Source: a virus
Virus record (IMG/VR): IMGVR_UViG_3300034524_000163
Coordinates: 1 to 20,099 of that record
DNA length: 20,099 nucleotides
Direction: 5' to 3' (one strand)
The position numbers and the translations under genes are program-made. Shown in pieces: positions 196 through 20,099 of this stretch. The notes beneath the pieces are model-generated. The model saw only the letters and a list, made by a program, of their open reading frames with translations. It was not told where the DNA came from and ran no database searches. How positions within the stretch are numbered: the first letter of the stretch is position 1; every line of letters starts with the position of its first letter.

Positions 196-220
196 CTCTA
201 TGGCACACATAGGAGTCTTT

Positions 221-5266: not shown

Positions 5267-5281
5267 GGTCGATCCTCCGGT

Positions 5282-5743
5282 TTAGGTCCAGTATTGGAAG
5301 CAGATGGTGAGCTTCTCGATGGTGTTCTCGGTGTTGCCGCCTTCGAGCTCGTCGTATTCGAGCGCCTTCACCCAGGCCCCATGCAGGGTCCAGCGGCGGG
5401 TCTCGTTGCCGGTGCGGTCGTAGCGGACAACGTCGATGTCGCGCATGTAGTCGGCCGGAAGGCCGCCGGTGACGGCGTTCACGTCCACCTGTTTCTTGAT
5501 CCATTCGCGGGCCGCCTCGTCGGAGCCGTCCTGCAGGTTGCCTTTCTCGAGGGTGATGTCCTCGAACTTGACCCGGCCCGCCACCTTTTGGTCGAACATG
5601 GACCCGGCCGGGGCGAAGGCCACTTCCTCGAATTCGGTTTTGGGCTCCTGTCCCTTGTGGAACAGGGCCACGTCGAAGCCGTTTACCTCGATGGCGAACT
5701 GCCAGTTCTGGTAAAGGCTCTTGGGCATGTTTCCGCTTCTCAT
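5282..5743 (-). CDS. Phage tail tube protein
   Basis: This 153-residue protein is the likely subunit of the inner tail tube through which DNA passes. It directly follows the sheath gene, as in Mu (L then M) and P2 (FI then FII). Visible features are the N-terminal MPKSLYQNWQFAIEVNGFDVALF, a Gly-containing strand-rich core, and WTLHGAWVKALEYDELEGG followed by ENTIEKLTICFQYW. This last pattern is typical of P2-FII/T4-gp19-like tubes, where the final strands carry conserved aromatics. The start at 5743 has GGGAG 9-10 nt upstream; a second ATG at 5728 (MPKSL) has a poorer site and would shorten the protein by five residues. The gene lies 15 bp after the sheath stop. Confidence 0.85.
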   Translation of the reverse strand: MRSGNMPKSLYQNWQFAIEVNGFDVALFHKGQEPKTEFEEVAFAPAGSMFDQKVAGRVKFEDITLEKGNLQDGSDEAAREWIKKQVDVNAVTGGLPADYMRDIDVVRYDRTGNETRRWTLHGAWVKALEYDELEGGNTENTIEKLTICFQYWT

Positions 5744-5758
5744 AGCCGTGTTCTCCCG

Positions 5759-7288: not shown

Positions 7289-7290
7289 GG

Positions 7291-7548
7291 TTATTTCCTC
7301 CGCTTGCTGGTGGTCTTGGCCTCATCGGCTGCGGTGTCATCGGTTGCAGTGGGCTTTTCCGGCTCCGGTTCCACGCCGCCGGTCAGGTCGGTGATGCGCA
7401 CCAGGCCGCGTTTTCCGGCGGTCTTGATCTCGGCGGAGAGGTCCTTGCGGGCAATGCTCTTGCGTTCTCGCGGCCCGAGGTGGAGGGTTCCCTGGCCGGA
7501 GAGGTTGAACGTCAGGGGTTGGAACTGCAGGTTTCTGATCTCGATCAC
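7291..7548 (-). CDS. Small phage protein between terminator and sheath
   Basis: This 85-residue protein has a GTG start at 7548 preceded by AAGGAG with 7 nt spacing. It sits where Mu-like phages encode gp38 (DUF2635), just before the sheath, but I do not see the DUF2635 signature. The first 55 residues look like a small beta-rich domain (IEIRNLQFQPLTFNL, then LHLGPRERKSIARKDL) with a Lys-rich, disordered tail ending KTTSKRRK. It loosely resembles the start of the 121-residue protein encoded at 9441-9806. Function is unknown; a tail-joining or assembly role is inferred only from position. It ends 2 bp before the sheath start and so is clearly in the same operon. Confidence 0.75.
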   Translation of the reverse strand: MIEIRNLQFQPLTFNLSGQGTLHLGPRERKSIARKDLSAEIKTAGKRGLVRITDLTGGVEPEPEKPTATDDTAADEAKTTSKRRK

Positions 7549-7560
7549 GGTTGTTCTCCT

Positions 7561-8109
7561 TTACGGTTGAATGGTTCGTTGCTCTGTCACGTCGCCGTGA
7601 AACTGGAAGGTCCGGTCCCGGATCAGCCGACCGTCGCGCAGGTCGCCGTCGTACACCGGGCAGGATTCGATGCGAATGCGTCCGGAGCTTTGCCGGAGGT
7701 TGGAGAGGTTCACCCGGGCCAGGCCGCCCAGAGGAATCAGTTCGGTAAGGTTCAGGCTGCCCTGGTCGGCGATGGCGATCTCCGGGTAAAGCTGGAGGAA
7801 CCGCGACACCGACTCGTGAAACCCGAGCAGTTCGGCCTCTCGATCCACGGTCACCACCAGGTCGAAATCGAGGTGATAGAGCCGGGGAAACCGGCACTCC
7901 TCGAAACTCAGCTCCGGGACATTCTTCTCGAACAGGCGGCTCTGGCTGCGGCGGAAACGGTCTTCCGTCAGCTTCGGCCCCTGGAGGATGACGCTGGGGG
8001 TGCGCTGGACCTCGAACAGGTCATCCGGGAACACCAGCACGGTGTCCGGGTGGATGGCCTGTTTGGCCAGGCGGATCAGGGTTTCTGTGACGGTCTGTAT
8101 CGTGCTCAA
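7561..8109 (-). CDS. Probable tail terminator (Mu gp37-like)
   Basis: This 182-residue protein starts with TTG at 8109, supported by GGAGG 6 nt upstream (no ATG is better placed). It occupies the position of Mu gp37 / lambda gpU-type tail terminators, after the tail-completion protein and before the sheath. Its pattern of an N-terminal helix (TVTETLIRLAKQAIH), then FPDD, PSVILQG and a strand RLYHLDFDLVVTVDREAE followed by a helix ESVSRFLQLYP fits the alpha/beta fold of these terminators. The C-terminus ends in a strand run with FQFHGDVTEQRTIQ. Sequence similarity to named families is too low for me to be certain. Confidence 0.65.
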   Translation of the reverse strand: MSTIQTVTETLIRLAKQAIHPDTVLVFPDDLFEVQRTPSVILQGPKLTEDRFRRSQSRLFEKNVPELSFEECRFPRLYHLDFDLVVTVDREAELLGFHESVSRFLQLYPEIAIADQGSLNLTELIPLGGLARVNLSNLRQSSGRIRIESCPVYDGDLRDGRLIRDRTFQFHGDVTEQRTIQP

Positions 8110-8131
8110 GGGACGCCTCCGTTTTCTGCCT

Positions 8132-8167
8132 GGTTACTTACCGGAAGCGCTGGGGATGTGTCGGAGG
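8132..8167. repeat. 36-bp dispersed repeat, copy 1
   Basis: GGTTACTTACCGGAAGCG, then six variable bases, then ATGTGTCGGAGG. The same element lies at 13536-13571 with 33 of 36 bases identical and in the same orientation. This copy fills most of the 59-bp gap between the tail-completion gene (stop at 8169) and the tail terminator gene (start 8109), the largest gap in the operon between 3809 and 13481. Flanking bases do not match between the copies. Confidence 0.8.
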
Positions 8168-8168
8168 C

Positions 8169-8654
8169 TCAAAGCGCGGAGCGGATCGCCTCGCGATAGT
8201 TCTGGAGGATTTGCTCGCGGTACTTCTCCATCACCGGATGCAGAAAGGGTCTGGCGGGGATGACGATGGTCGCGCCGTTGGGATGTTTGATGGTGGCCCC
8301 GTACTCCATGACGGCACCGATGTTCACCATGTCTTCACCGTCCTTGTTGACGGTGCCGCGCAGCAGTCCGACGAACGCCTTGTCGGCCATGATCTTCTGG
8401 GTGATAGCGTTGACGAGAAAGCCGGTGTCGATGAGCGCCTTGCTGGAACCTTTGCGCAGGGTGGTGCTTGCGGCGAGCTTCACGAAGGCCTGTCCGCCCG
8501 GGGCCTGGGAGCGAATCCCCCGCTGGATCTCGCGCACGAGAAAAAGGGCGTTGCGGATCGTGGCCTGACGCAGGGCCGTGGCCAGGCGCGGCCCCATGCC
8601 GGCGGTCAGCTTGGCGCGGGCCTTGTCCCAGTCACCGGTTCGCCTAACGCCCAT
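8169..8654 (-). CDS. Tail completion / virion morphogenesis protein (gp10 or Mu G-like)
   Basis: This 161-residue protein is probably the tail completion protein that joins head and tail. Features include the basic N-terminal helix region, LKTGFLV-type core (ALIDTGFLVNAITQKI near residues 93-108), the signature VNIGAVMEYGATIKHP, and IPARPFLHPVMEKYREQI. The last two patterns (an Ala/Glu-Tyr-Gly motif and an R-P-F-L-hydrophobic motif) are the mark of the HK97 gp10 / Mu gpG families. Its start overlaps the end of the preceding gene by 11 bp, implying translational coupling. Family length is normal. Confidence 0.8.
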   Translation of the reverse strand: MGVRRTGDWDKARAKLTAGMGPRLATALRQATIRNALFLVREIQRGIRSQAPGGQAFVKLAASTTLRKGSSKALIDTGFLVNAITQKIMADKAFVGLLRGTVNKDGEDMVNIGAVMEYGATIKHPNGATIVIPARPFLHPVMEKYREQILQNYREAIRSAL

Positions 8655-9003
8655 TGAGCTTCACCAGTTGCAGGTTCTTATGAGTGACGGTGCCGAAGAA
8701 GTGTTCTTCCTCCACACTCTGTATGCGATAGGTTTCCCTGTCGGTGGCCAGGCGGTCTTCACCCCGGACATCGGCATCTGGAAGGACGCAGGCGAGCGCG
8801 TCGATCTTGCCGCTCAGCTCCTCCGGCGGGGTTTCGTTCAGTTCGAGGGGGATGACAGAGATCTCCGCGTATTCGGCATCGTCGGTGCCGTAGAGCCGCT
8901 CGCCGGGAACCACGCGCAGGACGCGTGCTGTCTGGCCGGAGGAGAGGATCAGCCGGGCGACGTCGGCCACGGCTTCAGCGCGTTCCCGGTCATTCAACAA
9001 CAT
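8644..9003 (-). CDS. Head closure / head-tail adaptor protein
   Basis: This 119-residue protein lies between the connector and the tail-completion gene, the usual place for a head-closure protein (SPP1 gp16 / HK97 gp7-like). It starts with an acidic and Arg-rich helix (RERAEAVADVARLIL), followed by a strand-rich region rich in Glu and Val. ATG at 9003 overlaps the preceding gene by 14 bp. The assignment is by position and size; I do not recognise a family motif. Confidence 0.6.
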   Translation of the reverse strand: MLLNDRERAEAVADVARLILSSGQTARVLRVVPGERLYGTDDAEYAEISVIPLELNETPPEELSGKIDALACVLPDADVRGEDRLATDRETYRIQSVEEEHFFGTVTHKNLQLVKLNGR

Positions 9004-9454
9004 CGAGATCGATCCCTTGTTCGTAGATGACTGGAGTGAGTCCGCTCGGGGTCAGGATGTAGGATTCCTGGTCGAGCTGGGTGGCCGGGCGCAACTCGGT
9101 GAGCCGCTGGCGGTAGTCGGCGAGCAGATCGGCCTCGAGCTTGGCCCAGTGGCCGGGCTGGCCGGTTTTGTCCACCCGCTTGTCGCCGCTGGAAAAGGAA
9201 AAGGCGTTGGCGGTGGCCGAGCGCATAACCTGGCACGCGTGGATCTGCGCCATGATCACCAAAAGCTCGCGGACCTCGCCGGACGGCTCTGGGATAATCT
9301 CTCCGGCCGTGACGGTCAGCGATTGGTCGAGGTCTCGGCCGACCCGGAAAACGGCCTTCCGGACGCATCTCTCCAGAGTCTGGTCCTCGAAGAGAGATGC
9401 GCCCGGGTCGGACAGGTCGAGCCGCAGGTCGGCGATCAGGTCACTCAGCAGCAC
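8990..9454 (-). CDS. Head-tail connector protein
   Basis: This 154-residue protein starts with GTG at 9454, with GGAGGG 8 nt upstream. The N-terminus LLSDLIADLRLDLSDPGASLF, followed by DQTLERCVRKAVFRVGRDL, is the typical opening of gp6-like / Mu gp36-type connectors, which are helical ring proteins beneath the portal. The middle part (MAQIHACQVMRSAT) is also helical. Overlaps at both ends (14 bp each) place it firmly in the operon. No catalytic motif is present, as expected for a structural adaptor. Confidence 0.68.
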   Translation of the reverse strand: MLLSDLIADLRLDLSDPGASLFEDQTLERCVRKAVFRVGRDLDQSLTVTAGEIIPEPSGEVRELLVIMAQIHACQVMRSATANAFSFSSGDKRVDKTGQPGHWAKLEADLLADYRQRLTELRPATQLDQESYILTPSGLTPVIYEQGIDLDVVE

Positions 9455-9806
9455 CTTGCAGGCCCTCCAGGCGGCTCTTGAGCGCGTCGATCACCGTGCG
9501 ACGTTTCTCGGTGTCCATGTAACCTTTGAGGGTCTCCGGATTGGCTTCCTGGTTGACCTTGGAAATCGCCTCGGTGGCGGAGAGTTTGCTCAGGTCCACC
9601 GGTTCCGCGTCCTCATCTGGCTCGACCAAGGAAGTAGGTACAGATTCCTGTTCCCGTCTGTCGACCGTGGTCAGACGTCCACTCTTCAAAGCCGCCTGGA
9701 TCTGTTTGGTAAGAAGCTCCACTTCAACCACCTGACCGGGCATGAGCTTCAACCCGGCATCAGGGATAACCAGAATGCCGGGACGGATGTTCTTGATTCG
9801 ATTCAT
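9441..9806 (-). CDS. Small phage protein after the major capsid gene
   Basis: This 121-residue protein has ATG at 9806 preceded by GGGAGG. Its first 50 residues have a pattern like a small beta domain (IRPGILVIPDAGLKLMPGQ) and then an acidic linker and a helical tail. Position matches Mu gp35, between the capsid and connector genes. It has some resemblance to the small protein encoded at 7291-7548, in the spacing of its PG turn and of a basic GxL segment. I do not recognise a family; a capsid-stabilising or connector role is only a guess. Confidence 0.7.
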   Translation of the reverse strand: MNRIKNIRPGILVIPDAGLKLMPGQVVEVELLTKQIQAALKSGRLTTVDRREQESVPTSLVEPDEDAEPVDLSKLSATEAISKVNQEANPETLKGYMDTEKRRTVIDALKSRLEGLQGAAE

Positions 9807-9824
9807 GTGACGCCACCTCCCGGA

Positions 9825-10688
9825 TTACGGAATCAGTTTGACCTTGGCCATGATGTCGGGGCGGGTAATGCCCTGACCGATCTCTGACCACACCAGCCAG
9901 CCGGTCTTGAACCGGGTCTTCTGGTCGATGGACTCCGTCTTCAGGTTTTCGCGCACCGGCATCTTGCCGACCTCTTCATCCGGGACGATGATGATCTCGT
10001 CCAGCGGCATGGAGGCGGTCAGCAGAATGCCGCCGGTGCCGTAGTTCTTGATGACACCCTTCTGGCGCAGCTCGAGCTTGGTCTGGGGATCGAGGTTCCA
10101 GCCGCGCATGTCGTTAAACCGACGGCCACGCATGACGATGTACTTCACCGACAGCTCCAGATCCTCGATGATGGAGATGGCCTCGTTCAGGGCGTCTTCC
10201 ACCAGCACGCCACCCGTCACCTCGATAATATTGGCTGCAGGAATGGCCGAGGACAGCACCGAAATGGTGCGGCGGTCCATCTCCTTGCGGATGGCGTCGG
10301 CGGCGCTGGTCTGGATGTCCATCAGCGTGCCGATGTTGCCGTTCTTGAGGACGGAAACGTCCACCATCGGATTGGAGTGGATGCGGTTGGTGGGAAACTC
10401 GACCTCGTCCTTGCCCACTTCCTGTTCCTGAGCTTCACCTTCTTTACTGATCCAGTGGGCCTTGACGGTCGGTTTCTTCTGGTAAACCGGACGTTCGCCC
10501 TTGGGCAGCGTGTGTTTGGTGAGAAGCAGCGAGGAGATCTCCTTGCGTTTGATCTCCTGTTCAATGGGCGCGGCAATGGCGGCGGCAAGCGCCTGCATGC
10601 CTTCCGGCGACTCGAGAGCCTCGCTCATGAGCCGCGCCATGGTTTCCATGTATTCCTGGGAATGGATCTTCAACTGATTGGTTTTCAT
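9825..10688 (-). CDS. Major capsid protein (HK97-fold type)
   Basis: At 287 residues this is the likely shell subunit. It starts with a helical arm (residues 1-50, KIHSQEYMETMARLMSEAL), followed by a strand-rich stretch with NRIHSNPMVDVSVLKNG and a spine-helix-like segment TSAADAIRKEMDRRTISVL near residues 129-147. Then follow VLVEDALNEAISIIEDLEL and the pattern YIVMRGRRFNDMRGW, which is common in HK97-fold capsids where the gene product reports on its own assembly state. The gene is preceded by the decoration-like gene and the protease-scaffold gene, the standard head-module order. AAGGAG lies 9 nt before the ATG at 10688. Length is on the short side but within the range for this fold. Confidence 0.85.
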   Translation of the reverse strand: MKTNQLKIHSQEYMETMARLMSEALESPEGMQALAAAIAAPIEQEIKRKEISSLLLTKHTLPKGERPVYQKKPTVKAHWISKEGEAQEQEVGKDEVEFPTNRIHSNPMVDVSVLKNGNIGTLMDIQTSAADAIRKEMDRRTISVLSSAIPAANIIEVTGGVLVEDALNEAISIIEDLELSVKYIVMRGRRFNDMRGWNLDPQTKLELRQKGVIKNYGTGGILLTASMPLDEIIIVPDEEVGKMPVRENLKTESIDQKTRFKTGWLVWSEIGQGITRPDIMAKVKLIP

Positions 10689-10706
10689 GTGCGTTGGCTC
10701 CTTGGG

Positions 10707-11072
10707 TTAGACGAGCAGGCGGAATTTTAGGACGCCGCTCCGGACGGAAATGGCCTGGGCGATAACAAGTTGCCTGTTGGCGATGTTGCCGCCTTCGAGT
10801 TTTCCGGTGGTGGAGACCTTGAGGTTGTCTCCGGGGTTGATCGTTCCCTCGAAAACATCCGTTTCGTAGATCCCGCCGCCGCAGTAGATGCCCGGCATTT
10901 CACCTCCGGCGTAGTCCTTGATCAGAATGCCGAAAGAGCGAAGTTCGGGATCGGTGTTGACGGCGAACAGGTCGTCGCCGACCACGCGGACCACCTGGCC
11001 GAGCTGGCCGTCGCCTTGGATGTGGCCGTCGCCATAGGCGAGACCCCGGTGACACGGATTGATGAATGACAT
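10707..11072 (-). CDS. Capsid decoration-like protein
   Basis: This 121-residue protein lies between scaffold and major capsid genes, where many phages encode a head-decoration (cement) protein. It is beta-rich and glycine-rich (GLAYGDGHIQGDGQLGQVV, GGGIYETDVFEGTINPGD, then STTGKLEGG). The GDNLKVSTTGKL turn is reminiscent of the DUF2190 / capsid cement proteins, in which a PGD-x-L motif comes before a short strand pair. ATG at 11072 has AAGGAGG with 7 nt spacing. Tail to head gene distance is 18 bp. Confidence 0.72.
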   Translation of the reverse strand: MSFINPCHRGLAYGDGHIQGDGQLGQVVRVVGDDLFAVNTDPELRSFGILIKDYAGGEMPGIYCGGGIYETDVFEGTINPGDNLKVSTTGKLEGGNIANRQLVIAQAISVRSGVLKFRLLV

Positions 11073-11084
11073 GGTGTTTCCTCC

Positions 11085-11660
11085 TTATGCGTTGATTTCC
11101 GAGTGTTCGGGAGAGTCCTCGCCGACACGGTTGCGGTAAGCGGCCATGAACCCGTCGCGCAGGCGGTCCTCGAGCGATACCTTGCGGTCGTCCACATCGT
11201 GGGGCCGGACACCGGCGTCGCTGCGCAGCGGGGTTTCCGTCGATGCCTTGGCGGCGGGCTTGCCGCCCGGATCGCTGTCGGCGGGTTTCTCTTCCTTGTC
11301 CTTGTCCGCTTTTGCCGATTTGGGCAGGCGTTCGTAAGCGGCTTCGGTCGCGGCGAAGGCTTCGTCGGACAGTTCGGCCAGGCGTTTCAGTTCGGCTTCC
11401 CGGTCCTCCTCGGAAGCGAAGGAGAGTCCCTGCTTCTCCAGACGGGTGAGCAGCTTCTTGGCCCGGGAGCGGCAGGCGACCGCCTTTTGTTCGGCTTCCA
11501 GTTCCTGGACGCGTTTCTGCAGCTCGGCGACCTGGGCCTTGAGCTGCCGGTTTTCCTTTTCCAGGTCGGTAACGCGGGCAGGATCGCCTTCCTGCTGGGC
11601 CGGTTTCTTCTTGGCCGCTTCGACGGCCTGGTCATCGGTGGGTTTGGTTTTGTCTTCCAT
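11085..11660 (-). CDS. Nested scaffold protein (in-frame internal start)
   Basis: ATG at 11660 is preceded by a perfect AAGGAG (11674-11669) with 8 nt spacing, in frame with the larger fusion. It would give 191 residues: a short charged lead, a coiled coil (DLEKENRQLKAQVAELQKRV) and a flexible Lys/Ala/Glu-rich tail. This repeats the logic of lambda C/Nu3 and Mu I/Z, where scaffold is made from an internal start in the protease gene. It would assemble the capsid shell and then be cleaved by the protease. Confidence 0.7.
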   Translation of the reverse strand: MEDKTKPTDDQAVEAAKKKPAQQEGDPARVTDLEKENRQLKAQVAELQKRVQELEAEQKAVACRSRAKKLLTRLEKQGLSFASEEDREAELKRLAELSDEAFAATEAAYERLPKSAKADKDKEEKPADSDPGGKPAAKASTETPLRSDAGVRPHDVDDRKVSLEDRLRDGFMAAYRNRVGEDSPEHSEINA

Positions 11661-12308
11661 CGTGGAATCTCCTTCGGGTTGGGATTGGTCGGGCTGGCTC
11701 TGAAGGGACGCCACCTGCAGAATCCTGGCGTTCTCGTCCGCGCCTTTGCGGTCGAGCAGTCCCAGTCCGGTGAAAGTGACGCCGTGCAGAATCTCGAAAA
11801 CGGGTTGGCCATTGAAATCACGGCCCTTGAACTTGCGCAGGTGGGTGCAGTAGTCGGCCTTGTTCTGGAAGCGCTTATGGCAGACCGAACATTCGCCTTC
11901 CTGGTAGTCGCACTCCATGGAGACCTGGGAGATGATCCCGCGCTTTATCAGCTTGTAGGCCAGCCGGGCGGCCGGGGTGTCGTGGACGTACAGCTCGCCG
12001 ACGCATTCCACGCGGCCGCCGTTGTCGTCCTCCAGGTAGTCGGCGGCGACGATGCCACCGACGATGTCGTTGAACTCCTGCGAATGCTGCAGATCGACCT
12101 TCTTGTTCACGGCCGTCATGTGCCGACCGGACAACTCCTCGGCGGTGAAGTGGTCGCCGTTCTTGTTGGTTCCGGTGCGGCAGAGCACGAAGCTGAACTG
12201 GGGGTCGCCCGCCGAACCTACATCCATGGCCTCGGTCGCGAGGCGTTCACCATCGCCCAGCCGGATGTCCACGGGGATGCTGGTGTGGAAGTTCGCGGCG
12301 GCGGCCAT
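11085..12308 (-). CDS. Possible nested protease-scaffold product
   Basis: ATG at 12308 (MAAAANFHTS) begins exactly at the boundary between the methyltransferase and protease regions. GGGAGGAG (12328-12321) lies 12 nt upstream, a somewhat long spacing. The product would have 407 residues, the usual size of a phage protease-scaffold protein. If used, the methyltransferase is made only as an N-terminally extended minor or major form. This is inference from sequence signals. Confidence 0.45.
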   Translation of the reverse strand: MAAAANFHTSIPVDIRLGDGERLATEAMDVGSAGDPQFSFVLCRTGTNKNGDHFTAEELSGRHMTAVNKKVDLQHSQEFNDIVGGIVAADYLEDDNGGRVECVGELYVHDTPAARLAYKLIKRGIISQVSMECDYQEGECSVCHKRFQNKADYCTHLRKFKGRDFNGQPVFEILHGVTFTGLGLLDRKGADENARILQVASLQSQPDQSQPEGDSTMEDKTKPTDDQAVEAAKKKPAQQEGDPARVTDLEKENRQLKAQVAELQKRVQELEAEQKAVACRSRAKKLLTRLEKQGLSFASEEDREAELKRLAELSDEAFAATEAAYERLPKSAKADKDKEEKPADSDPGGKPAAKASTETPLRSDAGVRPHDVDDRKVSLEDRLRDGFMAAYRNRVGEDSPEHSEINA

Positions 12309-13481
12309 CGGAACGGGTTTCTCCTCCCGCTCGGCGCTGGCCTTGGCCCCGGGAGCGCAGACGAACAGACGCTCCTTGGCATTGGAAGCCTCGCCGTGCT
12401 TGGAGGTGATGGCGTAGTGGTGATCCTTGGACTTCATCCGGCTCTGTTTGCCGAAGGAGCCGATGATCCGCTTCATCTCCTGCTCGTTGGGATAGGCGTG
12501 ATCGCGGTAGGAGATCAGCCAGTGCGGGATGTGCTTGGCGTTGCCGAGAAAGGTCTGGAAGAACTCGTTGGCGTTGGCCTTGGTGACGGTCTTGTGGTCG
12601 GTCTCGTAATACTTGACCTTGGTGTCGGCCTTGATTTCGAGCCCTTCCCAATAGGTCATGAGCCCCTCCACGAAGTGGTAGGCCCGCTCGTAGTTGGTGG
12701 TCGAAAACTCGGTGGCGTAGGGCGGATCGAAGTAGGCCAGATCCGCCTTGGCTTTCGGCAGCAGGTCGTTGATGTCCTGCCGGTATGCCTTGTTCTCCTT
12801 GTCGTTGTCGAAAACCAGGGCGTTGATACGCTGCAGGTTCTTGCGCAAGCGATCCTTGAACTCGTCGGGGGTGTCCTGGCGGCGGCCATAATCGGTGGAC
12901 GACGAGAAGTGGCCGAAGCCACCCTTGCCGCTCATGCAGGTTTTGCCGAGGCCGAACAGGGCGATGTCTTTCTTGAAGCCGGAGAGCTTGTCGCAGTTGG
13001 CGCGGATGGTGTCGATCAGCGCATGGACGCCCTTGGCGAAGAAAATGCCCTTGAAGTTGTCCTGAACGAAGCTGCCCGCCTTGGCGTTGTCGGCCAGGAG
13101 TGCCTCGATCTCGTCCTCGCTCAGGCGAACCGAGTTGTTCTCGATGATCGCCTTGGCGGCATGGTGGCAGTAGCGGAGCCGGTCGTTGGCGATGACCTGG
13201 AGGCCCTTGGTCTTGTACATGTAGGCCACGACCGCAGACCCCGAAAAGGCATCCAGCACCGTGCCAGTGCCTTCCGGGGTATGCTTCCAGATCCAGTCGA
13301 CGAGCTTCTGCTTACTGCCGATGTAGTTGGTGATGTACTTGGGGCGCTTCTCGGGAGGGAGCTCTTCAGGAGCGGACTGTTCGGCGGCCTCGGACTCGAG
13401 CGCATCGGGATCGAGAGTCAGCGCCGCATCGGCCTCCAGTAGAAACGCCAGCCTTTCCAGGTCTGTGGCGAACAGTTCCAT
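11085..13481 (-). CDS. Fusion: D12-class adenine methyltransferase, prohead protease, scaffold
   Basis: One 798-residue frame carries three phage functions. Residues 45-375 form a Dam-like N6-adenine methyltransferase: YIGSKQKLVDWIW (53-65), SAM-binding motif LDAFSGSAV (76-84) and catalytic DPPY (252-255). Residues 392-600 look like an HK97-type (S78-like) prohead protease, with candidate catalytic H466 (LQHSQEF) and S521 (SQVSMECDY). A Cys-His knuckle is inserted after the serine (C531, C534, C545, H547), likely zinc-binding. Residues 608-798 are scaffold-like, with a coiled coil near 637-670 and an acidic/Lys-rich disordered tail. ATG at 13481 has GGAG 6 nt upstream, preferred over the TTG at 13484. 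Internal starts with ribosome binding sites at 12308 and 11660 could release protease and scaffold separately. A methyltransferase fused to the protease is unusual; the likely target base is adenine, but its site is unknown. Confidence 0.85.
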   Translation of the reverse strand: MELFATDLERLAFLLEADAALTLDPDALESEAAEQSAPEELPPEKRPKYITNYIGSKQKLVDWIWKHTPEGTGTVLDAFSGSAVVAYMYKTKGLQVIANDRLRYCHHAAKAIIENNSVRLSEDEIEALLADNAKAGSFVQDNFKGIFFAKGVHALIDTIRANCDKLSGFKKDIALFGLGKTCMSGKGGFGHFSSSTDYGRRQDTPDEFKDRLRKNLQRINALVFDNDKENKAYRQDINDLLPKAKADLAYFDPPYATEFSTTNYERAYHFVEGLMTYWEGLEIKADTKVKYYETDHKTVTKANANEFFQTFLGNAKHIPHWLISYRDHAYPNEQEMKRIIGSFGKQSRMKSKDHHYAITSKHGEASNAKERLFVCAPGAKASAEREEKPVPMAAAANFHTSIPVDIRLGDGERLATEAMDVGSAGDPQFSFVLCRTGTNKNGDHFTAEELSGRHMTAVNKKVDLQHSQEFNDIVGGIVAADYLEDDNGGRVECVGELYVHDTPAARLAYKLIKRGIISQVSMECDYQEGECSVCHKRFQNKADYCTHLRKFKGRDFNGQPVFEILHGVTFTGLGLLDRKGADENARILQVASLQSQPDQSQPEGDSTMEDKTKPTDDQAVEAAKKKPAQQEGDPARVTDLEKENRQLKAQVAELQKRVQELEAEQKAVACRSRAKKLLTRLEKQGLSFASEEDREAELKRLAELSDEAFAATEAAYERLPKSAKADKDKEEKPADSDPGGKPAAKASTETPLRSDAGVRPHDVDDRKVSLEDRLRDGFMAAYRNRVGEDSPEHSEINA

Positions 13482-13535
13482 CAACGTCTCCGGTCAGTTT
13501 GCTGTGCTCTCCGCGACCTGCGGGGAGCGTTCAGC

Positions 13536-13571
13536 GGTTACTTACCGGAAGCGTCGGCGATGTGTCGGAGG
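13536..13571. repeat. 36-bp dispersed repeat, copy 2
   Basis: Same element as at 8132-8167, in the same orientation, differing only at three positions in the middle. On the minus strand both copies can be read as LRHI, two variable residues, ASGK and a stop. It lies upstream of the methyltransferase-protease gene, so the two copies bracket the capsid and connector genes. Confidence 0.8.
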
Positions 13572-13635
13572 GTGACGGTGAATTTCAGCGGGCGGGGTTC
13601 AGCCGGAAATTTCCTGGAAGTTGCCGAGATTTGGC

Positions 13636-13672
13636 TTGAAAGTCGATCTGCTATTCGTTATCTTGTGTTATC
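13636..13672 (+). promoter_or_regulatory. Promoter and possible operator of the inserted module
   Basis: A -35 box TTGAAA (13636-13641), a 17-nt spacer and a -10 box TATCTT (13659-13664) form a plausible sigma70 promoter. GTTATC occurs at 13657-13662 and 13667-13672, spaced 10 bp, or one helical turn, overlapping the -10 box. That placement would suit an operator for the HTH protein encoded just downstream, giving autorepression. Binding is not demonstrated. Confidence 0.5.
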
Positions 13673-13709
13673 ATGTTTTATTATTGGGCTCAGAAAAGCG
13701 GTGACTGAC

Positions 13710-13919
13710 ATGGAACCTCAAGACAAATGGCTGACCATCGAGGAGCTTTCCGGCTATCTGAAGATGAGCCGCAGCAAGCTCTATCAGATGGCCCAGAAAG
13801 GCGAGCTGCTCGGTTCCAAGATCGGAACACAGTGGCGGTTCGACCGGGATGAGATCGACGATTGGGTGAAAAGCAAGCGGCCTGCGGCGGATAAAAAATC
13901 CACGGGGGAAACAAAATGA
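13710..13919 (+). CDS. Small helix-turn-helix DNA-binding protein (excisionase family)
   Basis: This 69-residue protein consists of one winged helix-turn-helix domain of the HTH_17/excisionase type: WLTIEELSGYLKMSRSKLYQ, then MAQKGELLGSKIGTQWRF and DRDEIDDWVKSK. The recognition-helix and wing (G-x-x-W-R-F) features are all present. The ATG at 13710 starts the homology; an in-frame GTG at 13701 is also possible and neither has a strong ribosome binding site. Its stop overlaps the start of the helicase gene (ATGA), so the two are translated as one operon. Such small proteins act either as recombination directionality factors or as repressors. With no recombinase beside it, a regulator of the helicase-nuclease is the better inference. 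Confidence 0.85.
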   Translation: MEPQDKWLTIEELSGYLKMSRSKLYQMAQKGELLGSKIGTQWRFDRDEIDDWVKSKRPAADKKSTGETK

Positions 13920-16900
13920 CTACCTCGACAACGCAGAGTCCGAATGAAAAAACCGTTCGTCTGGTCGATTATTTGCTCCGGCTGGCGACTCTGCGTTCGA
14001 AACTGATTCGCGATATTGCCGAATACGAGAAGATCCTTTGGGTTTCAAGCGTCCCGCATGAGCGAGGGTGTTTTACTCAGGCGTGGGGACGTGATGAGGA
14101 GCATGAGCCGGACGAGTGGCTTGAGGTGGAAAATCGGCGGGAGCCGGAATTGCCTGCCGTACCCGCTCAATGCAAAGACTGGGTAAATCAAACTGCACTA
14201 CGAAATAAGGGCGATTTGCCTGAACTTCTGTCAAAAATCACTAGACAAATCCAAAATCCAGATTGGCACGAAGGATCGGATCAACCGGAAACGATTCCGC
14301 ACACTGAACATATAGAAGATCATCCGACGATTCAGCGTGCATGGGATCGGTATGTTGAAGAAAAGTGGCTACCCTGGACAGAGTCACATAATGCCTGGGA
14401 GAAGGTCCACAAAGTATATTCCTCACTCTTTGCCATCCATCAGGAGCAACTACGGCTTGGCGAGGAATACGAGTTGGTACTCGGCTTGGGCTTGCTTACA
14501 TGGCAGACGCCCACCGGCCAAAGAGTCCGGCGTCACTTGGTTGTCGCCGACGCCATCTTGGAGTTTGAGACCCGCTTGGGGAAATTCACCGTCCGTCCCC
14601 ACACGGAGGGTGCTAAGTTGCGCCCTGAACTCGACATGCTGGACATCGAGGAGCAGCCACCGCGCGCGGAGGAAACCGCGAAATCTTCACTGAGCAAAGC
14701 CGAAGATGATCCGTGGGAAAGAGACTGTATTGAAGGCGTCCTTCAGGCTCTTGTGCATTCGATCAACTCGAAAGGCGAATATGAAGACTCTCTGGATGCG
14801 AAGAGCATCCGCGCTTCGGCTAAGCCGATTGTGGAATATGCTCCCGCTTTGATCCTGCGCAAGCGTTCCGTGAAGGGTCTCACCGAAACCTTAAAACGGA
14901 TCAAGGAACAGATCGAAAACGGCGGAGCCATCCCCGGTGAATTCGCAGACCTTGCAGAGATTCACCCGAAAGATAACCGTGAACCAAGCGACGAACCGGG
15001 AGAGGCTGACGCTGCATTCGATGGCGAGATTTTCTTTCCAAAACCATCGAACGATGAGCAACGCCTCATTGTAGAAAAGATTCGAGCGGCAAGCGGTGTG
15101 CTTGTGCAGGGACCGCCTGGCACCGGGAAATCCCATACAATCGCCAATTTGATTTGCCATCTGCTTGCCACAGGACAGCGAACGCTCATCACGGCGAAAA
15201 CGACGCGTGCGCTTCAGGTTCTTGAGGGGCTTGTGCCTGACGAGTTGCACTCCCTCTGCATCAATCTGCTTGGTAGCGGACTTGAGGAACGTCGCTCTCT
15301 CGAATCCAGTGTGGGCGGGATTCTCCGCAAGAGTGAGGAATGGAACGAAGGTAGCGCCCAACAAAAACGCACGGAACTCGAAGATTGCCTGCGGAAGCTC
15401 CGTGAGGAGAAGGAAAAAGTCAACCGGCGGCTCCGTGACATCCGGGAATCCGAAACGCATACGCAGTCCATTGCGGAGGGAACCTATCAAGGGACGGCAG
15501 CTCGAATCGCCGAAGCCGTGAACCGGGATCGAGCCGACTATGAATGGTTCACGGATTCCGTTCCCTTTGACAAGACTTGCCAGGTCGACGTAAACGATCT
15601 ACGAAACGTCCTTGTGGCTTTGCGCCAATTTACGCCAGAGAAGCGCCGAGAATTGAAACTTGCATGGCCAGAAGCGTTGCCGTCTTCTGAACGCTTTGCC
15701 GATCTCGTGAGTGATGAGGCAAGCGCGATTGAAGAAGTGGAGAGAGCGGCGCGTGAGGCCGACGACTGGTTGGCCGATTTATTGGCAAGAAACAATCCTT
15801 CGAGCATTGAGACAATTCTCAACTCTTTCTCATCTTTCCGGGACACTCGCAAAAGACTTCTCGCAGCGCCGTATTCATGGATGGATGATGCCCTGCGCGA
15901 TGTTCTGGGCGGAAATTCATCCCTGTGGAATGAACTCCTTCGTGTTACTCGATATATCATTGCATCAATAGAAGAACTCGTTCCGATTGCCGATGAGACC
16001 CGTATCGAATTCCCGGATACTATTGATACCAAGTCGTTGCGTGAAGACGCCCGCACACTGAAAGAGCATATGGAGAATGGCGGAAAACTGGGTTGGGGGA
16101 TATTTCGGCCCAAACCAGTAAAAGAGCGGTTACACGTTATCAAGACAGTGAAGATTGGCGGACGGCCATGCTCCACTGTCGAGGATTTCTCAAATCTTGC
16201 TGATGCGCTGCATGTTCGTATTGAATGCGAAAAGGCATGGAATTTCTGGAAAGGGCGACGTGACAAAGTTGAAGGGCCGTACGCTCTCCAGCTGACCACT
16301 CTCAAGTCGTTGTGCGATGCGCTCGACAACGTCTTGGCGCTCGAAGAACTCATTGCAAAATGTCGAGAAGCGATAAACCAATGTTCTGGTATGGGCGAGC
16401 CAATATGGGCCGACGAATCCCAAATTGAAGGAATTGCCTCCGCATGCCGTCTTGCACTAGCCCGTATCCGCAAGCGGCGTGCCAGTGGGGAGATCCAAGG
16501 CGTTGAGGCACAGATTTCTCGTGTGGCCGCCGCGGGTGGCGTACATCCGGTCACAAATGAATTAATCGGCGCTATCCGCAGTCGCGACATGGATGGATTT
16601 ACTCAGTGCGCGAATAGGATTCAGGAATTGGAGAGGCAGCGCCAGCGACTTCTGGAGGTAGACGAATATCTCTCGAAACTACGTCCCTTGCTTCCGCAGT
16701 TTACCCAATCTCTGGAACAAACATGCAACGAGCCGTATTGGGAGGAACGAGTCCAGCGCATTGGTGACGCTTGGCATTGGGCGCAGGCGAGGTGCTGGAT
16801 CGAGAATTACATCCGGCAGGAAGATGTTCCCGCGCTCGTCACGCGCGCCAAACAAATCGAGGATGAGATAAATAGCATCATTGCGAAGCTGGCCTCAATC

Positions 16901-18709
16901 CACGCCTGGTCGTTCTGTTTCTCGCGGCTCAAGGAAGACCATCGCCGCCACATGGAAGCCTGGCAGCAGTCCATGCGACGGCTTGGCAAGGGGACGGGGA
17001 AGCACGCGCCACGCCATCGTCGCGAAGCTCAAGGGCACCTCAATGCATGTCGCGAGGCGGTTCCCGCATGGGTGATGCCACTGCATCGTGTTTGGGACAC
17101 GGTATATCCCGCCCCCGGCATGTTCGATGTGATTATCGTTGACGAGGCTTCGCAATGCGGCGTCGAAGCGCTTCCCTTGTTCTATCTCGGAAAGAAGATA
17201 TTGATCGTTGGCGATGACAAGCAGATCAGCCCGGATGCCGTGGGTTTGCCCCGTGATTCAGTGCATCGCCTGATGGAAGAGTTTCTTTACGATTTCCAAT
17301 TCAAGTCATCGTTCGATATTGAGAGCAGCCTGTTCGATCATGGGAAACTCCGGTATGGAACCCGGCGAATCACGCTACGCGAGCACTTCCGTTGCATGCC
17401 GGAGATCATTCGTTTCAGCAACGATCTCTGCTATTCGGATACACCGCTAATTCCATTGAGACAGTACGGTCCGGACCGGTTGCCGCCGCTTGAGCATGTT
17501 TTTGTACGCGGCGGGTATCGGGAAGGTTCGAACAATCGTGCAATCAACCGCCCGGAGGCCGAAGCCATCGTTGAACGAATCGTCGAAATGTGCAGCGACA
17601 GCCGTTATGATAAGAAGAAGATGGGCGTGGTGGTGCTTCAGGGCGAAGCGCAAGCGGCTTTGATCGAGAACCAATTGCTCGAACGATTAGGAGCCGAAGA
17701 AATGGAACGCCGCCGCTTGGTTTGCGGCAATCCATACAGTTTCCAGGGCGATGAGCGGGACATCATGTTTTTGTCGCTGGTCGCCGCGAGCAACGAAAGA
17801 ATTGGTCCGCTCACAAAGGCGGCGGACGAGCGGCGTTTCAATGTCGCTGCCAGCCGTGCCCGTGACCAGATGATACTTTTCCACTCCGTAACGTGTGACG
17901 ATCTCAGTATACATGATTTGCGGCGGAGATTGCTCGATTTCTTCGAGAATACAAAGCCCCAACAGATTGCCGGTATCAACCGGGATGAACTGGAGCGGCG
18001 GGCGGTTCAGGACAATCGAGGTGTCGTGAACCCTCCCGCGCCATTCGATAGCTGGTTCGAGGTAGATGTTGCCCTGGAACTGCTTCGCAAAAATTTTATT
18101 GTACTACCGCAATACGAAGTTGCAGGAAAACGTATCGACCTTGTGGTTGAGGGAGGGCAGGCGCGACTGGCCATTGAGTGCGATGGTGATCACTGGCACG
18201 GTGCGGATCGATATGAAGATGATATGCAGCGTCAGCGGCAATTGGAGCGTTGCGGCTGGGAGTTCTTCAGAGTCAGGGAATCGGTGTTTTACTCAAATAA
18301 GGTTGATGCCTTGAAGGGCCTTTGGGATGCGTTAAAGGAAAGAGGCATTTACCCGCAAAATATTGATATTCCCGACGAACCAAACCTATCCACATCAGCG
18401 CCGCAAGACGAACCGGTCGAGGAAGAATTCCAAAAAAGCGAACCCCCTAGGCCCGTTCATGAGCCAGAGGTCGATATCAAAGTAGAGGTTGAGGATACAG
18501 TAGTTTATGTGGATATTGAAAATCCTCAGGTCGAGAAGCAGGCATTAATAACTTGCGAAAAATCAAACCCGGAATGGGGGGCTATCAATATCAACACACC
18601 AATTGCAAGAGCACTTATAGGTGCGACTCTGGGCTCCACAGTCGAGGCAAAGTTGCCCAAGGGAACGGTCTTGCTGCTAATCAAAGACATTAAGAAGCCG
18701 AGAAGTTAA
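13916..18709 (+). CDS. SF1 helicase with Vsr-like nuclease and GreA/B C-terminal-like domain
   Basis: A 1597-residue multidomain protein. Residues 1-390 are an N-terminal region of unknown role. Walker A GPPGTGKS is at 399-406, followed by a long insertion with coiled coil (about 470-515). Walker B VDEAS is at 1075-1079, then GDDKQ, LREHFRCMPE, NPYSFQGDERD and motif VI SRAR at 1313-1316: a complete DNA2/UPF1-type superfamily 1 helicase. Residues 1380-1490 form a Vsr/DUF559-like endonuclease, with D1408 in RIDLVV and E1421-x-D1423 in IECDGDHWH. Residues 1523-1597 resemble the GreA/GreB C-terminal domain (INTPIARALIG, then LPKGTVLLLIKDI). The gene runs against the phage operon, is less GC-rich, and overlaps the HTH gene by 4 bp, with GGGGGA before its ATG. 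Helicase-Vsr proteins occur among phage-defence genes (for example the Hhe type), so defence is inferred. The Gre-like tail suggests contact with RNA polymerase. All key motifs look intact. Confidence 0.9.
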   Translation: MTTSTTQSPNEKTVRLVDYLLRLATLRSKLIRDIAEYEKILWVSSVPHERGCFTQAWGRDEEHEPDEWLEVENRREPELPAVPAQCKDWVNQTALRNKGDLPELLSKITRQIQNPDWHEGSDQPETIPHTEHIEDHPTIQRAWDRYVEEKWLPWTESHNAWEKVHKVYSSLFAIHQEQLRLGEEYELVLGLGLLTWQTPTGQRVRRHLVVADAILEFETRLGKFTVRPHTEGAKLRPELDMLDIEEQPPRAEETAKSSLSKAEDDPWERDCIEGVLQALVHSINSKGEYEDSLDAKSIRASAKPIVEYAPALILRKRSVKGLTETLKRIKEQIENGGAIPGEFADLAEIHPKDNREPSDEPGEADAAFDGEIFFPKPSNDEQRLIVEKIRAASGVLVQGPPGTGKSHTIANLICHLLATGQRTLITAKTTRALQVLEGLVPDELHSLCINLLGSGLEERRSLESSVGGILRKSEEWNEGSAQQKRTELEDCLRKLREEKEKVNRRLRDIRESETHTQSIAEGTYQGTAARIAEAVNRDRADYEWFTDSVPFDKTCQVDVNDLRNVLVALRQFTPEKRRELKLAWPEALPSSERFADLVSDEASAIEEVERAAREADDWLADLLARNNPSSIETILNSFSSFRDTRKRLLAAPYSWMDDALRDVLGGNSSLWNELLRVTRYIIASIEELVPIADETRIEFPDTIDTKSLREDARTLKEHMENGGKLGWGIFRPKPVKERLHVIKTVKIGGRPCSTVEDFSNLADALHVRIECEKAWNFWKGRRDKVEGPYALQLTTLKSLCDALDNVLALEELIAKCREAINQCSGMGEPIWADESQIEGIASACRLALARIRKRRASGEIQGVEAQISRVAAAGGVHPVTNELIGAIRSRDMDGFTQCANRIQELERQRQRLLEVDEYLSKLRPLLPQFTQSLEQTCNEPYWEERVQRIGDAWHWAQARCWIENYIRQEDVPALVTRAKQIEDEINSIIAKLASIHAWSFCFSRLKEDHRRHMEAWQQSMRRLGKGTGKHAPRHRREAQGHLNACREAVPAWVMPLHRVWDTVYPAPGMFDVIIVDEASQCGVEALPLFYLGKKILIVGDDKQISPDAVGLPRDSVHRLMEEFLYDFQFKSSFDIESSLFDHGKLRYGTRRITLREHFRCMPEIIRFSNDLCYSDTPLIPLRQYGPDRLPPLEHVFVRGGYREGSNNRAINRPEAEAIVERIVEMCSDSRYDKKKMGVVVLQGEAQAALIENQLLERLGAEEMERRRLVCGNPYSFQGDERDIMFLSLVAASNERIGPLTKAADERRFNVAASRARDQMILFHSVTCDDLSIHDLRRRLLDFFENTKPQQIAGINRDELERRAVQDNRGVVNPPAPFDSWFEVDVALELLRKNFIVLPQYEVAGKRIDLVVEGGQARLAIECDGDHWHGADRYEDDMQRQRQLERCGWEFFRVRESVFYSNKVDALKGLWDALKERGIYPQNIDIPDEPNLSTSAPQDEPVEEEFQKSEPPRPVHEPEVDIKVEVEDTVVYVDIENPQVEKQALITCEKSNPEWGAININTPIARALIGATLGSTVEAKLPKGTVLLLIKDIKKPRS

Positions 18710-18722
18710 GTGCTTCTTAACT
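18704..18722. terminator. Hairpin between converging genes
   Basis: AGTTAAG (18704-18710) and CTTAACT (18716-18722) form a perfect 7-bp inverted repeat with a 5-nt loop. It spans the stop codons of both the helicase gene (TAA 18707-18709) and the MuF gene (TTA on the plus strand, 18706-18708). It is AT-rich with no long T-run, so it is at most a weak bidirectional terminator. Confidence 0.3.
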
Positions 18723-19569
18723 CCTCTCGTGCGAATACTGGAAGGTTGGTGCATCGGCAAAAGGGATGAGCGGGTTGTTGGGGAAATTTGTCGCTGGGAA
18801 AGACTTTTCCATCAAGCGGGCCGCAGACCGGACAAGTCCGTTCATCGCTCATTGTCATCCATTCCAACTTTTCGACTCCTACCTGCGTATAGAACTTTTT
18901 TCGTCCCATGTTGTGAGCGCGGAGGACCTCGGTGCGGGCGATCATCTCCATGCGGTACTGAGCCTTGCTGAACACCTTTGTCCCCGCCTGTTTGAACGAT
19001 TCCTTGTATATCACCACTTTTCCTAGATCCCGGACTATGTCGTCGGTTCCTTTTCCCTCGACGATGGCCTGCATGATGACCCGCTTGATGCCGTCTGCGA
19101 GTTCGCGGTGGACGTCACCGGCGAGTGTGAGGTTGTACTGCGCCATGAAGTCGAGGGCATTGGTGTCGACGATGGTGAACACCTTGGTGGCCAACTTGTC
19201 GATGCCATCTGGCTTCAGGTCCGCGTAGAACGGCAGCGCCGCGTCGGCGAGCTCTCCGATTCCCTGCTGGATACCGAGCTTGAAGGAGTCCTTGGTCGTC
19301 TTGCGAAAGACCAGGGTCTGCTCCCGCTTGAGCCGCTTCATGGTGTCGTCGAGTTCGAGCTGGAGTTTTTCCAACCCCTTGAGGGCGGCGAGCTTGTTGT
19401 CCGGCAGGGAGCCGAGGGAGCGGTACTGGAGGATGGCGCGGGCGACCTCGTCTTCGGCCTGTTTCAGCGCCTGGGTGAGTTGGGCCGTGACCTGGTCGTT
19501 GTAGCGGTTGCGGGCCGTCAGGCTTTTCAGGGTGGCCGCCTGGATGCGCTGCTTGAGGTCAGACGGCAT
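18706..19569 (-). CDS. Phage head morphogenesis protein, MuF (SPP1 gp7) family
   Basis: This 287-residue minor head protein is associated with the portal inside the capsid. The C-terminal MuF domain is clear: RTEVLRAHNMGRKKFY (212-227), then the metal-knuckle pattern with C246-x-x-C249 (ERTCPVCGPLDGKVF) and HPFCRC (268-273). The N-terminal two-thirds is helical (QLTQALKQAEDEVARAIL) as is usual. ATG at 19569 has GGGAG 8 nt upstream and shares a base with the portal stop (TGATG), so the genes are coupled. Its stop overlaps the convergent helicase gene by a few bases, so the inserted module was fitted tightly against the end of this gene without damaging it. Confidence 0.9.
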   Translation of the reverse strand: MPSDLKQRIQAATLKSLTARNRYNDQVTAQLTQALKQAEDEVARAILQYRSLGSLPDNKLAALKGLEKLQLELDDTMKRLKREQTLVFRKTTKDSFKLGIQQGIGELADAALPFYADLKPDGIDKLATKVFTIVDTNALDFMAQYNLTLAGDVHRELADGIKRVIMQAIVEGKGTDDIVRDLGKVVIYKESFKQAGTKVFSKAQYRMEMIARTEVLRAHNMGRKKFYTQVGVEKLEWMTMSDERTCPVCGPLDGKVFPSDKFPQQPAHPFCRCTNLPVFAREELRST

Positions 19570-19990
19570 CAGCGGGACTCCCGGCGGTCGATGAAACGAC
19601 AGGCCGGGGCGTCGAAGGTGCGCTCGCTGTTGTGGACCCGGCAGTGGTTGGTGTCAGCAATGAAGTGGCTGCACTCGTCGCACACGGCAGCAATGCCAGT
19701 GAACTCCAGGTCGCCCGACCAGACCAATGCCGCCTCCGCCGTGGGCTCATCGTCCTCGGCCGGAATCCCGAGCATCTTCCGGGCGCGAGGCACGCTGAGG
19801 ATGCCGGAGACGACCATATCCACCACTGGCTTCACCTGCTTCTCGTCCATCAGGTCGATCTGCTTACGTTCGGTCTCGCGGTTGGCGGCCTCTATGTCCG
19901 GGTCCAGATCCATCTTGAGCTGAAGGCTGGAGCGGCTGATGAGCTTGCGGTCGTAGAGTTCGATGAGGAGTTTTGGGTAGCCTTTCGAAT
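19569..19990 (-). pseudogene. Phage portal protein, C-terminal fragment
   Basis: About 138 residues remain of what is probably the portal, the ring through which DNA enters the head. It is inferred from its place just before MuF and from the text KGYPKLLIELYDRKLISRSS, followed by LDPDIEAANRETERKQID, which is typical of the C-terminal part of portals. The 5' part is missing because an insertion sequence begins near 19990; the residues MCPFYS before that come from the element. The C-terminus has an unusual Cys-rich end (CDEC, then C after ten residues and ACRF near the stop), possibly a zinc knuckle. Without the N-terminal part the protein cannot form a portal ring. Confidence 0.7.
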
Positions 19991-20099
19991 AAAATGGACA
20001 CAAGATAGGTTGACGATGCAGAGACGCGGGAGGTGTCCATGAGTGAGAAGAACGTACCGAAACGCTGGTCAGCCAAGCGTAAGCAAGAGGTGGTCTTGC
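19991..20099 (+). mobile_element. Left end of an insertion sequence
   Basis: The phage frame is lost near 19990. TGGACACAAG from 19995 looks like the tip of a terminal inverted repeat, and the matching TGTGTCCA is found at 100-107 on the far left of the window. A gene with a good ribosome binding site starts within 45 bp, as is usual for IS elements. The element continues beyond the window, so its family and target duplication cannot be determined. Confidence 0.6.
20039..20099 (+). CDS. Transposase first reading frame, 5' part only
   Basis: Twenty codons are visible: MSEKNVPKRWSAKRKQEVVL. ATG at 20039 has GGGAGG 5 nt upstream. The text WSAKRKQEVVL resembles the beginning of the first reading frame (helix-turn-helix part) of IS3-like transposases, which often begin with a short charged lead and then RKxExVL. 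The rest lies outside the window, so this is a family-level guess. Confidence 0.55.
   Translation, partial: MSEKNVPKRWSAKRKQEVVL

What the first reader, a model, noticed from the sequence alone, without database searches (positions are those of the whole stretch)
13710..18709. HTH plus giant helicase-nuclease with a GreA/B-like tail: candidate new defence system
Seen: a two-gene operon with 4-bp overlap encoding an excisionase-type HTH protein and a 1597-residue protein with intact SF1 helicase motifs and a Vsr/DUF559-type active site (D1408, E1421, D1423). Known: helicase-Vsr proteins occur as single-gene anti-phage systems, and prophages carry defence genes as cargo. Inferred: this is a regulated defence or superinfection-exclusion unit in which the helicase translocates on nucleic acid and the nuclease cuts. 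The HTH partner and the C-terminal addition set it apart from the helicase-Vsr design I know.
Basis: partly seen in the sequence, partly recalled or inferred. Interest (0 to 1): 0.8.

Follow-up and report, generated by a model that had tools for sequence, protein, structure and literature searches.

The report
Phage-borne helicase-nuclease with swappable tail
A prophage carries, in a spot where sister phages carry other known defence genes, one large predicted helicase-nuclease whose last domain is freely swapped between relatives and in this copy is the part of GreA/GreB that docks on RNA polymerase, which suggests a phage-restriction enzyme whose targeting module can be exchanged.

Summary
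In detail: HTH gene 13710-13919 overlaps by 4 bp a 1597-aa ORF (13916-18709) with intact SF1 (Upf1/Sen1-like) motifs, a Vsr-like MTES_1575 nuclease and a GreA/GreB C-terminal domain (Pfam E 1e-9; AlphaFold2/Foldseek top hits GreA, GreB, Gfh1). New here: (1) the operon is a sharply bounded cargo block (13607-18744) in a myophage-type prophage. Cargo-free sister phages align on both sides, and at the same site other sisters carry a BsuBI/PstI restriction-modification pair or AbiEi/AbiEii, so a defence role is well supported. (2) The HTH is not the helicase's own partner: the same gene and leader precede the restriction-modification pair in one sister, and it is missing beside about 50 other homologues. 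(3) The C-terminal tail is an exchangeable module. A syntenic phage copy, 95-98% identical in DNA through the nuclease core, breaks abruptly into an unrelated tail; across 55 homologues Gre tails sit at four separate places, and other tails are absent, DUF3320, wHTH-like or undescribed. Best reading: an anti-phage helicase-nuclease with a variable targeting tail, here probably RNA polymerase-docking (inferred, untested; one RNAP-contact residue is not conserved). It fails membership tests for Hhe and ProA. New variant of a known kind.

The parts
13607..18744 (.). Cargo block: the stretch absent from cargo-free sister phages (replaces 4.6 kb of L097, positions 5295-9878)
   Evidence: blastn: window 3804-13606 matches L097 at 91%, 18745-19973 at 86%, nothing between
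13636..13664 (+). sigma-70-like promoter TTGAAA-17-TATCTT upstream of the HTH gene
   Evidence: scan (number of hits at chance level), but the 17-nt spacing and similar hexamers recur upstream of the HTH in L137 (TTGAAA/TATTTT) and L002 (TTGATT/TATCTT)
13710..13919 (+). HTH_17 / excisionase-type DNA-binding protein, 69 aa; relative of MAD1 of the MADS system
   Evidence: Pfam 8e-15; NF047737 60.8 bits, below cut-off 80; 77% identical HTH precedes an R-M operon in L137
13916..18709 (+). 1597-aa helicase-nuclease; start overlaps the HTH stop by 4 bp
13916..14965 (+). N-terminal conserved domain (residues 1-350), no known fold found
   Evidence: AlphaFold2 pLDDT 83.6, no PDB match at E<0.001
15041..15490 (+). 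RecA1: Walker A QGPPGTGK (K405) and motif Ia region (residues 376-525)
   Evidence: AAA_11; K405 invariant in 55
15491..16795 (+). fast-evolving insert between motif Ia and motif II (residues 526-960)
   Evidence: 49-75% aa identity to L002 here versus 88-96% after it
17048..17905 (+). motif II (D1076 E1077) and RecA2 motifs to VI (R1314)
   Evidence: AAA_12; closest solved chains are Upf1/Sen1 type
18056..18334 (+). MTES_1575 Vsr/DUF559-type nuclease, D1408, E1421, D1423
   Evidence: 1.5e-26; model matches homing nuclease I-Bth0305I (TMt 0.78) and, more weakly, Vsr
18335..18478 (+). low-confidence acidic linker (residues 1474-1521); the tail-swap breakpoint lies just before it, at about residue 1460
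   Evidence: nt identity to L002 98% at residues 1441-1460, then 48%, then 36%; pLDDT 44-58
18479..18694 (+). GreA/GreB C-terminal (RNA polymerase-docking fold) domain, residues 1522-1593
   Evidence: Pfam 1.2e-9; Foldseek GreA E 2.3e-6, rmsd 1.3
11085..13484 (-). left neighbour: phage D12 adenine methyltransferase fused to a prohead-protease-like part
   Evidence: 43 phage loci
18706..19569 (-). right neighbour: MuF-like minor head protein, 287 aa, lacking the 1240-residue extension of cargo-free sisters

Best explanation
This is prophage cargo encoding a single-protein nucleic-acid restriction factor. Shown by sequence: a Upf1/Sen1-like SF1 motor, a Vsr-like nuclease, a GreA/GreB C-terminal domain, and an overlapping small HTH gene in a defence-cargo site. 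Inferred: the motor translocates on phage nucleic acid and the nuclease cuts it; the C-terminal tail is a swappable recognition module that tells the enzyme where to load; in this copy the Gre-type tail tethers it to RNA polymerase (beta' rim helices beside the secondary channel), so it acts on actively transcribed or stalled phage templates, their R-loops or transcripts. It lacks the Gre coiled coil with the acidic tip, so it should not itself stimulate transcript cleavage. The HTH is a cassette regulator, not part of the effector.
For: Cargo block sharply bounded against sister phages, with R-M (L137) and AbiE (L117, L121) at the same site; same HTH and leader in front of helicase or R-M. 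Homologue next to an Avs4 gene above the curated cut-off, 1506.7 vs 1500; others beside Dnd-like, restriction-type and Wadjet-type genes. Catalytic residues conserved and dN/dS about 0.10. Tail swap: L002 versus window; four separate Gre placements and 20 tail changes on the tree, shuffled mean 23.3; a Gre-like tail also on a DUF4011-type relative. Gre fold by HMM and by model. Precedents: GreA/B-C in predicted counter-invader proteins (PMC8195603); HelD, an RNAP-recycling NTPase with a Gre-like arm in the secondary channel (PMC7749165).
Against: No experiment. RNAP docking is inferred from fold alone: GreA S121, needed for RNAP binding (PMC7527559), is N in the window and varies in the other Gre tails, and FKBP-like domains also bind other partners. 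Most family members have no tail and so must recognise targets without one. Tail classes below Pfam cut-offs were assigned by eye. The window is a fragment with truncated tape-measure and portal genes, so this copy may sit in a dead prophage. Neighbour scans had no matched control.
Confidence: 0.65

Rival explanations
1. Defence helicase-nuclease as above, but the Gre-like tail does not bind RNA polymerase: it is a generic protein-protein or nucleic-acid docking module (for example binding a phage protein, or dimerising).
For: Non-conserved S121 position; unrelated tails (wHTH-like, DUF3320, KOW-like, none) occupy the same place, so no single partner is needed.
Against: Repeated separate gain of specifically the GreA/B-C fold and retention of most of the SPIAR.LIG loop of GreA (TPIARALIG in the window).
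Confidence: 0.35
2. Housekeeping or phage replication/repair helicase rather than defence: a prophage-borne Dna2/IGHMBP2-like enzyme resolving replication intermediates or R-loops.
For: SF1 relatives of this type include repair and RNA helicases (Upf1, Sen1, Dna2).
Against: Opposite strand to the phage genes, absent from close sister phages, replaced by R-M or AbiE, patchy across phyla, copies elsewhere near defence genes.
Confidence: 0.1
3. Prophage superinfection-exclusion or inter-element competition factor aimed at plasmids or related phages rather than a general anti-phage system.
For: Cargo of a prophage; many relatives on plasmids.
Against: Chromosomal copies with no phage genes seen close by (L014, L015, L019); the distinction needs experiments.
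Confidence: 0.3

Closest known systems
Hhe (DUF4011 helicase-Vsr single-gene anti-phage protein; NF042953, PADLOC Hhe)
   Same: SF1 Upf1-like helicase followed by a Vsr-like nuclease; single large protein; defence
   Different: No DUF4011 N-terminus; 134 bits against a cut-off of 2000, best match over the C-terminal half; different N-terminal domain; variable tail
PADLOC PDC-S37 (phage defence candidate) and NCBIfam anti-phage protein ProA (NF058533)
   Same: Best-scoring profiles, aligned from Walker A through the nuclease (203 and 205 bits)
   Different: ProA cut-off 1500 not met; N-terminal part unmatched; six other homologues tested also score only 175-220 bits on PDC-S37, so the family does not seem to be modelled there
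MTES_1575-type SF-I helicase, Vsr REase, wHTH/DUF3320 proteins (Anantharaman 2013, PMC3710099)
   Same: Same nuclease family together with an SF-I helicase; DUF3320 is one of the tails seen in this family
   Different: Those are fused to HEPN and transglutaminase parts; no GreA/B-C tail described there
TPR, GreA/B-C, PIN counter-invader proteins (Kaur 2021, PMC8195603)
   Same: GreA/B-C fold in a predicted defence effector, proposed to act on RNAP hijacked by viruses
   Different: PIN nuclease effector and TPRs, no helicase; unrelated core
HelD (PMC7749165)
   Same: NTPase with a Gre-like element that engages the RNAP secondary channel
   Different: RNAP recycling, no nuclease; the Gre-like part is a coiled-coil arm rather than the C-terminal domain alone

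Membership tests
Hhe | Whole-protein NCBIfam score >= 2000 with DUF4011 N-terminus | tested here: not met
   133.8 bits; no DUF4011 hit
Hhe | SF1 helicase plus Vsr-type nuclease in one protein | tested here: met
   AAA_11, AAA_12, MTES_1575
ProA (NF058533) | Score >= 1500 over about 1903 positions | tested here: not met
   204.8 bits, profile 630-1763 only
PDC-S37 | Full-length match to the PADLOC profile | tested here: inconclusive
   203 bits, profile 298-1376 of 1550; PADLOC's own cut-offs not available here
MADS (methylation-associated defence system) | mad1-mad8 operon | tested here: not met
   HTH 60.8 bits, below the MAD1 cut-off of 80; the cargo block holds only the HTH and helicase genes
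GreA/GreB transcription factor | C-terminal FKBP-like domain | tested here: met
   Pfam 1.2e-9; Foldseek GreA, GreB, Gfh1, Rnk
GreA/GreB transcription factor | N-terminal coiled coil with acidic tip | tested here: not met
   tail begins at the C-terminal domain after a low-confidence linker
Anti-phage defence system | Reduced phage plaquing dependent on catalytic residues | not testable with these tools
   needs plaque assays

The most novel reading that the evidence does not exclude
A family of restriction helicase-nucleases in which the catalytic body is constant and target recognition is set by interchangeable C-terminal modules, one of which docks the enzyme on RNA polymerase through a captured GreA/GreB C-terminal domain, giving transcription-targeted restriction of phage DNA or transcripts.
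Probability: 0.35. Interest if true: 0.85.

Novelty: new variant of a known kind. Interest (0 to 1): 0.62.

Why it matters
How single-protein helicase-nucleases such as Hhe choose their targets is not settled in anything I read here. A natural experiment (two phages, same site, nuclease core 95-98% identical in DNA, different tails) makes the question directly testable by tail swapping, and points to RNA polymerase as one possible handle for recognising phage activity. It also defines a site among phage structural genes that trades complete defence systems, two kinds of them behind one regulator gene.

Tried and rejected
Gre tail as a stable hallmark: rejected, most homologues lack it and four separate placements are forced. 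HTH as conserved partner: rejected. N-terminal domain identity by fold: AlphaFold2 model good, no PDB match at E<0.001. More viral homologues: nuclease-plus-tail only re-found L002-L004, the tail alone found nothing, the HTH only L137 again. Literature on PDC-S37 and on ProA as an anti-phage protein: nothing found. A Gre-tailed helicase in papers: none found.

Full report
WHAT IS THERE. The window is an IMG/VR virus record of 20,099 bases. On its + strand, between phage head genes that run on the - strand, lie an HTH gene (13710-13919, 69 aa) and a 1597-aa gene (13916-18709) that overlap by ATGA. The large protein has AAA_11 and AAA_12 helicase halves, an MTES_1575 nuclease (residues 1381-1473, E 1.5e-26) and a GreA/GreB C-terminal domain (1522-1593, E 1.2e-9, above Pfam's cut-off). 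Its nearest solved relatives by sequence are Upf1/Sen1-type helicases. In an alignment of 55 family members the Walker A lysine (K405), D1076/E1077 and R1314 (motif VI) are invariant, and the nuclease residues D1408, E1421 and D1423 are kept in 52, 51 and 53 rows.

STRUCTURE. An AlphaFold2 model of residues 1370-1597 gives a confident nuclease (most blocks above 95 pLDDT), a low-confidence linker and a small tail domain (about 61-79). Foldseek's top PDB matches are GreA, GreB, Gfh1 and Rnk for the tail (GreA E 2.3e-6, rmsd 1.3 over 73 columns) and the homing nuclease I-Bth0305I (TMt 0.78) and, weakly, Vsr for the nuclease. The N-terminal 395 residues model well (pLDDT 83.6) but match nothing solved at E<0.001: an uncharacterised domain conserved across the family.

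THE OPERON IS PROPHAGE CARGO AT A DEFENCE SITE. The left neighbour is a phage methyltransferase-protease fusion and the right one a MuF-like minor head protein. Forty-three phage loci encode the fusion. In cargo-free sisters (e.g. L097) window 3804-13606 aligns at 91% and 18745-19973 at 86%, and the 5.14 kb in between (13607-18744) replaces 4.58 kb of theirs. In those sisters the MuF protein is 1523-1571 aa; in the window it is 287 aa, so the cargo displaced its long extension. At the same site L137 carries a BsuBI/PstI restriction endonuclease and an Eco57I-type methylase, and L117 and L121 carry AbiEi/AbiEii pairs next to the methyltransferase gene. The helicase core has 53.6% G+C against 61.6% for the phage genes. 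Prophage cargo that alternates with R-M and abortive-infection modules is strong circumstantial evidence for a defence role.

THE HTH IS A SHARED CASSETTE GENE. In L137 the same HTH gene (77% identical protein) and leader (87-90% identical DNA) precede, and overlap, the methylase of the R-M pair. A profile of the HTH finds it beside only three helicases (window, L002, L015) and this R-M operon, not beside the other homologues. A promoter-like TTGAAA-17-TATCTT lies upstream (at chance level by count) and recurs with the same spacing in L137 and L002 (read). The HTH resembles MAD1 of the MADS system (60.8 bits, cut-off 80). I read it as a regulator of whatever cargo follows it (inference).

THE TAIL IS A SWAPPABLE MODULE. 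L002 is a second phage contig with the same neighbours, HTH and helicase (76% identical overall). Through residues 1401-1460 of the nuclease the DNA is 95-98% identical, against 62-90% elsewhere, and at about residue 1460 identity falls to 48% and then about 35%: L002 ends in an unrelated, winged-helix-like tail. That is what a recombination tract ending in the nuclease would leave. Chromosomal relatives L014 and L015 have the L002-type tail, L013 and L019 none. Across the family the tail is absent in most members, or GreA/GreB-type (window, L005 Microvirga, L047 Roseomonas, borderline L017 Muricauda), DUF3320 (Pfam on L072, others by similarity), wHTH-like, a recurrent 'IDKR..GALWVIGG' module in Bacillota with no Pfam hit in the member tested, or KOW-like. 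On a maximum-likelihood tree of the core the four Gre tails need four changes even if only strongly supported branches are believed, and all tail classes need 20 changes against 23.3 in shuffles. A DUF4011-type helicase of Rhizobium also ends in a Gre-like domain by sequence. Tail classes other than Gre and DUF3320 rest on my reading of the sequences.

SELECTION. Between the two phage copies dN/dS over the shared 1478 codons is about 0.10, and the fastest region is the insert between motifs Ia and II (residues about 560-960).

OTHER CONTEXT. A chromosomal homologue (L014) sits about 370 bp downstream of an Avs4 gene that passes its curated cut-off. L003/L004 lie beside Dnd-like genes (my reading), L008 beside a methyltransferase and a restriction endonuclease, and L007 near TIGR02678-02680 genes, which belong to Wadjet-type loci (own knowledge). 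A PADLOC scan of 114 neighbours hits PbeA, AriA, SspE, AbiLi and others, but without a control.

MECHANISM. Shown: gene content, intact motifs, predicted folds, cargo status, tail exchange. Inferred: the motor moves on phage nucleic acid and the nuclease cuts. In Gre factors the C-terminal globular domain docks on the beta' rim helices of RNAP (PMC7527559, PMC4598747), and a GreA/B-C domain has been proposed to steer other counter-invader proteins to RNAP (PMC8195603). HelD shows that an NTPase can engage the secondary channel through a Gre-like arm (PMC7749165). So the window's tail most simply tethers the enzyme to transcribing RNAP. Against this, GreA S121, whose change to P reduces RNAP binding, is N here and variable in the other Gre tails, and most family members have no tail. 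I give the defence reading about 0.8 and RNAP docking about 0.4.

MEMBERSHIP. It works like Hhe and related helicase-nucleases but fails the curated cut-offs for Hhe (134 vs 2000) and ProA (205 vs 1500); PDC-S37 is the best PADLOC profile (203 bits) but covers only part of the protein, and six other homologues score no better than 220. I file it as a new variant of the SF1 helicase plus Vsr-type nuclease kind.

CAVEATS. The window is a fragment; its tape-measure homology (stops at 3804, next to an integron integrase and qac gene) and portal homology (stops at 19973, next to a transposase-like start) are cut, so this prophage may be defective while the cargo is intact.

Noticed in passing
window 2023-3135 and 3416-3745: Integron integrase (TIGR02249, 487 bits) followed by a Qac-family SMR efflux gene (NF033137, 190.6 bits, above cut-off; about 78% DNA identity to plasmid qacL), abutting a truncated phage tape-measure gene.
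   Followed up: partly
window 200-1861: P-type cation ATPase with a disrupted C-terminus, just before the integron integrase.
   Followed up: no
window 19974-20099: Homology to sister phages stops at 19973 inside the portal gene; a + strand frame beginning MSEKNVPKRWSAKRKQEVVL (20039) looks like a transposase start.
   Followed up: partly
window 11085-13484: D12 adenine methyltransferase fused to a prohead-protease-like domain (Peptidase_S78 weak), with relatives in 43 phage loci.
   Followed up: partly
L097 4356-9041 and other sister phages: MuF minor head protein with a conserved extension of about 1240 residues without a confident Pfam domain; lost in the window and L002, shortened in L137, where cargo sits.
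   Followed up: partly
L016, L025, L027, L029, L040, L043, L044, L050 (helicase C-termini): Recurrent small C-terminal module with a motif like IDKR..GALWVIGG.EL; no Pfam hit in the member tested (L043); seems doubled in L029 and L050.
   Followed up: no
L062 9089-14908: Homologue whose ORF runs on into an arginase/agmatinase-like sequence; real fusion or missing stop not decided.
   Followed up: no
L118 7529-8206; L124 2224-3540: Further cargo at the same phage site: an unknown 225-aa protein and an AAA_14-DUF4143 protein.
   Followed up: partly
window residues 1-350 of the large ORF (13916-14965): Conserved N-terminal domain with a confident predicted fold and no PDB match at E<0.001.
   Followed up: partly
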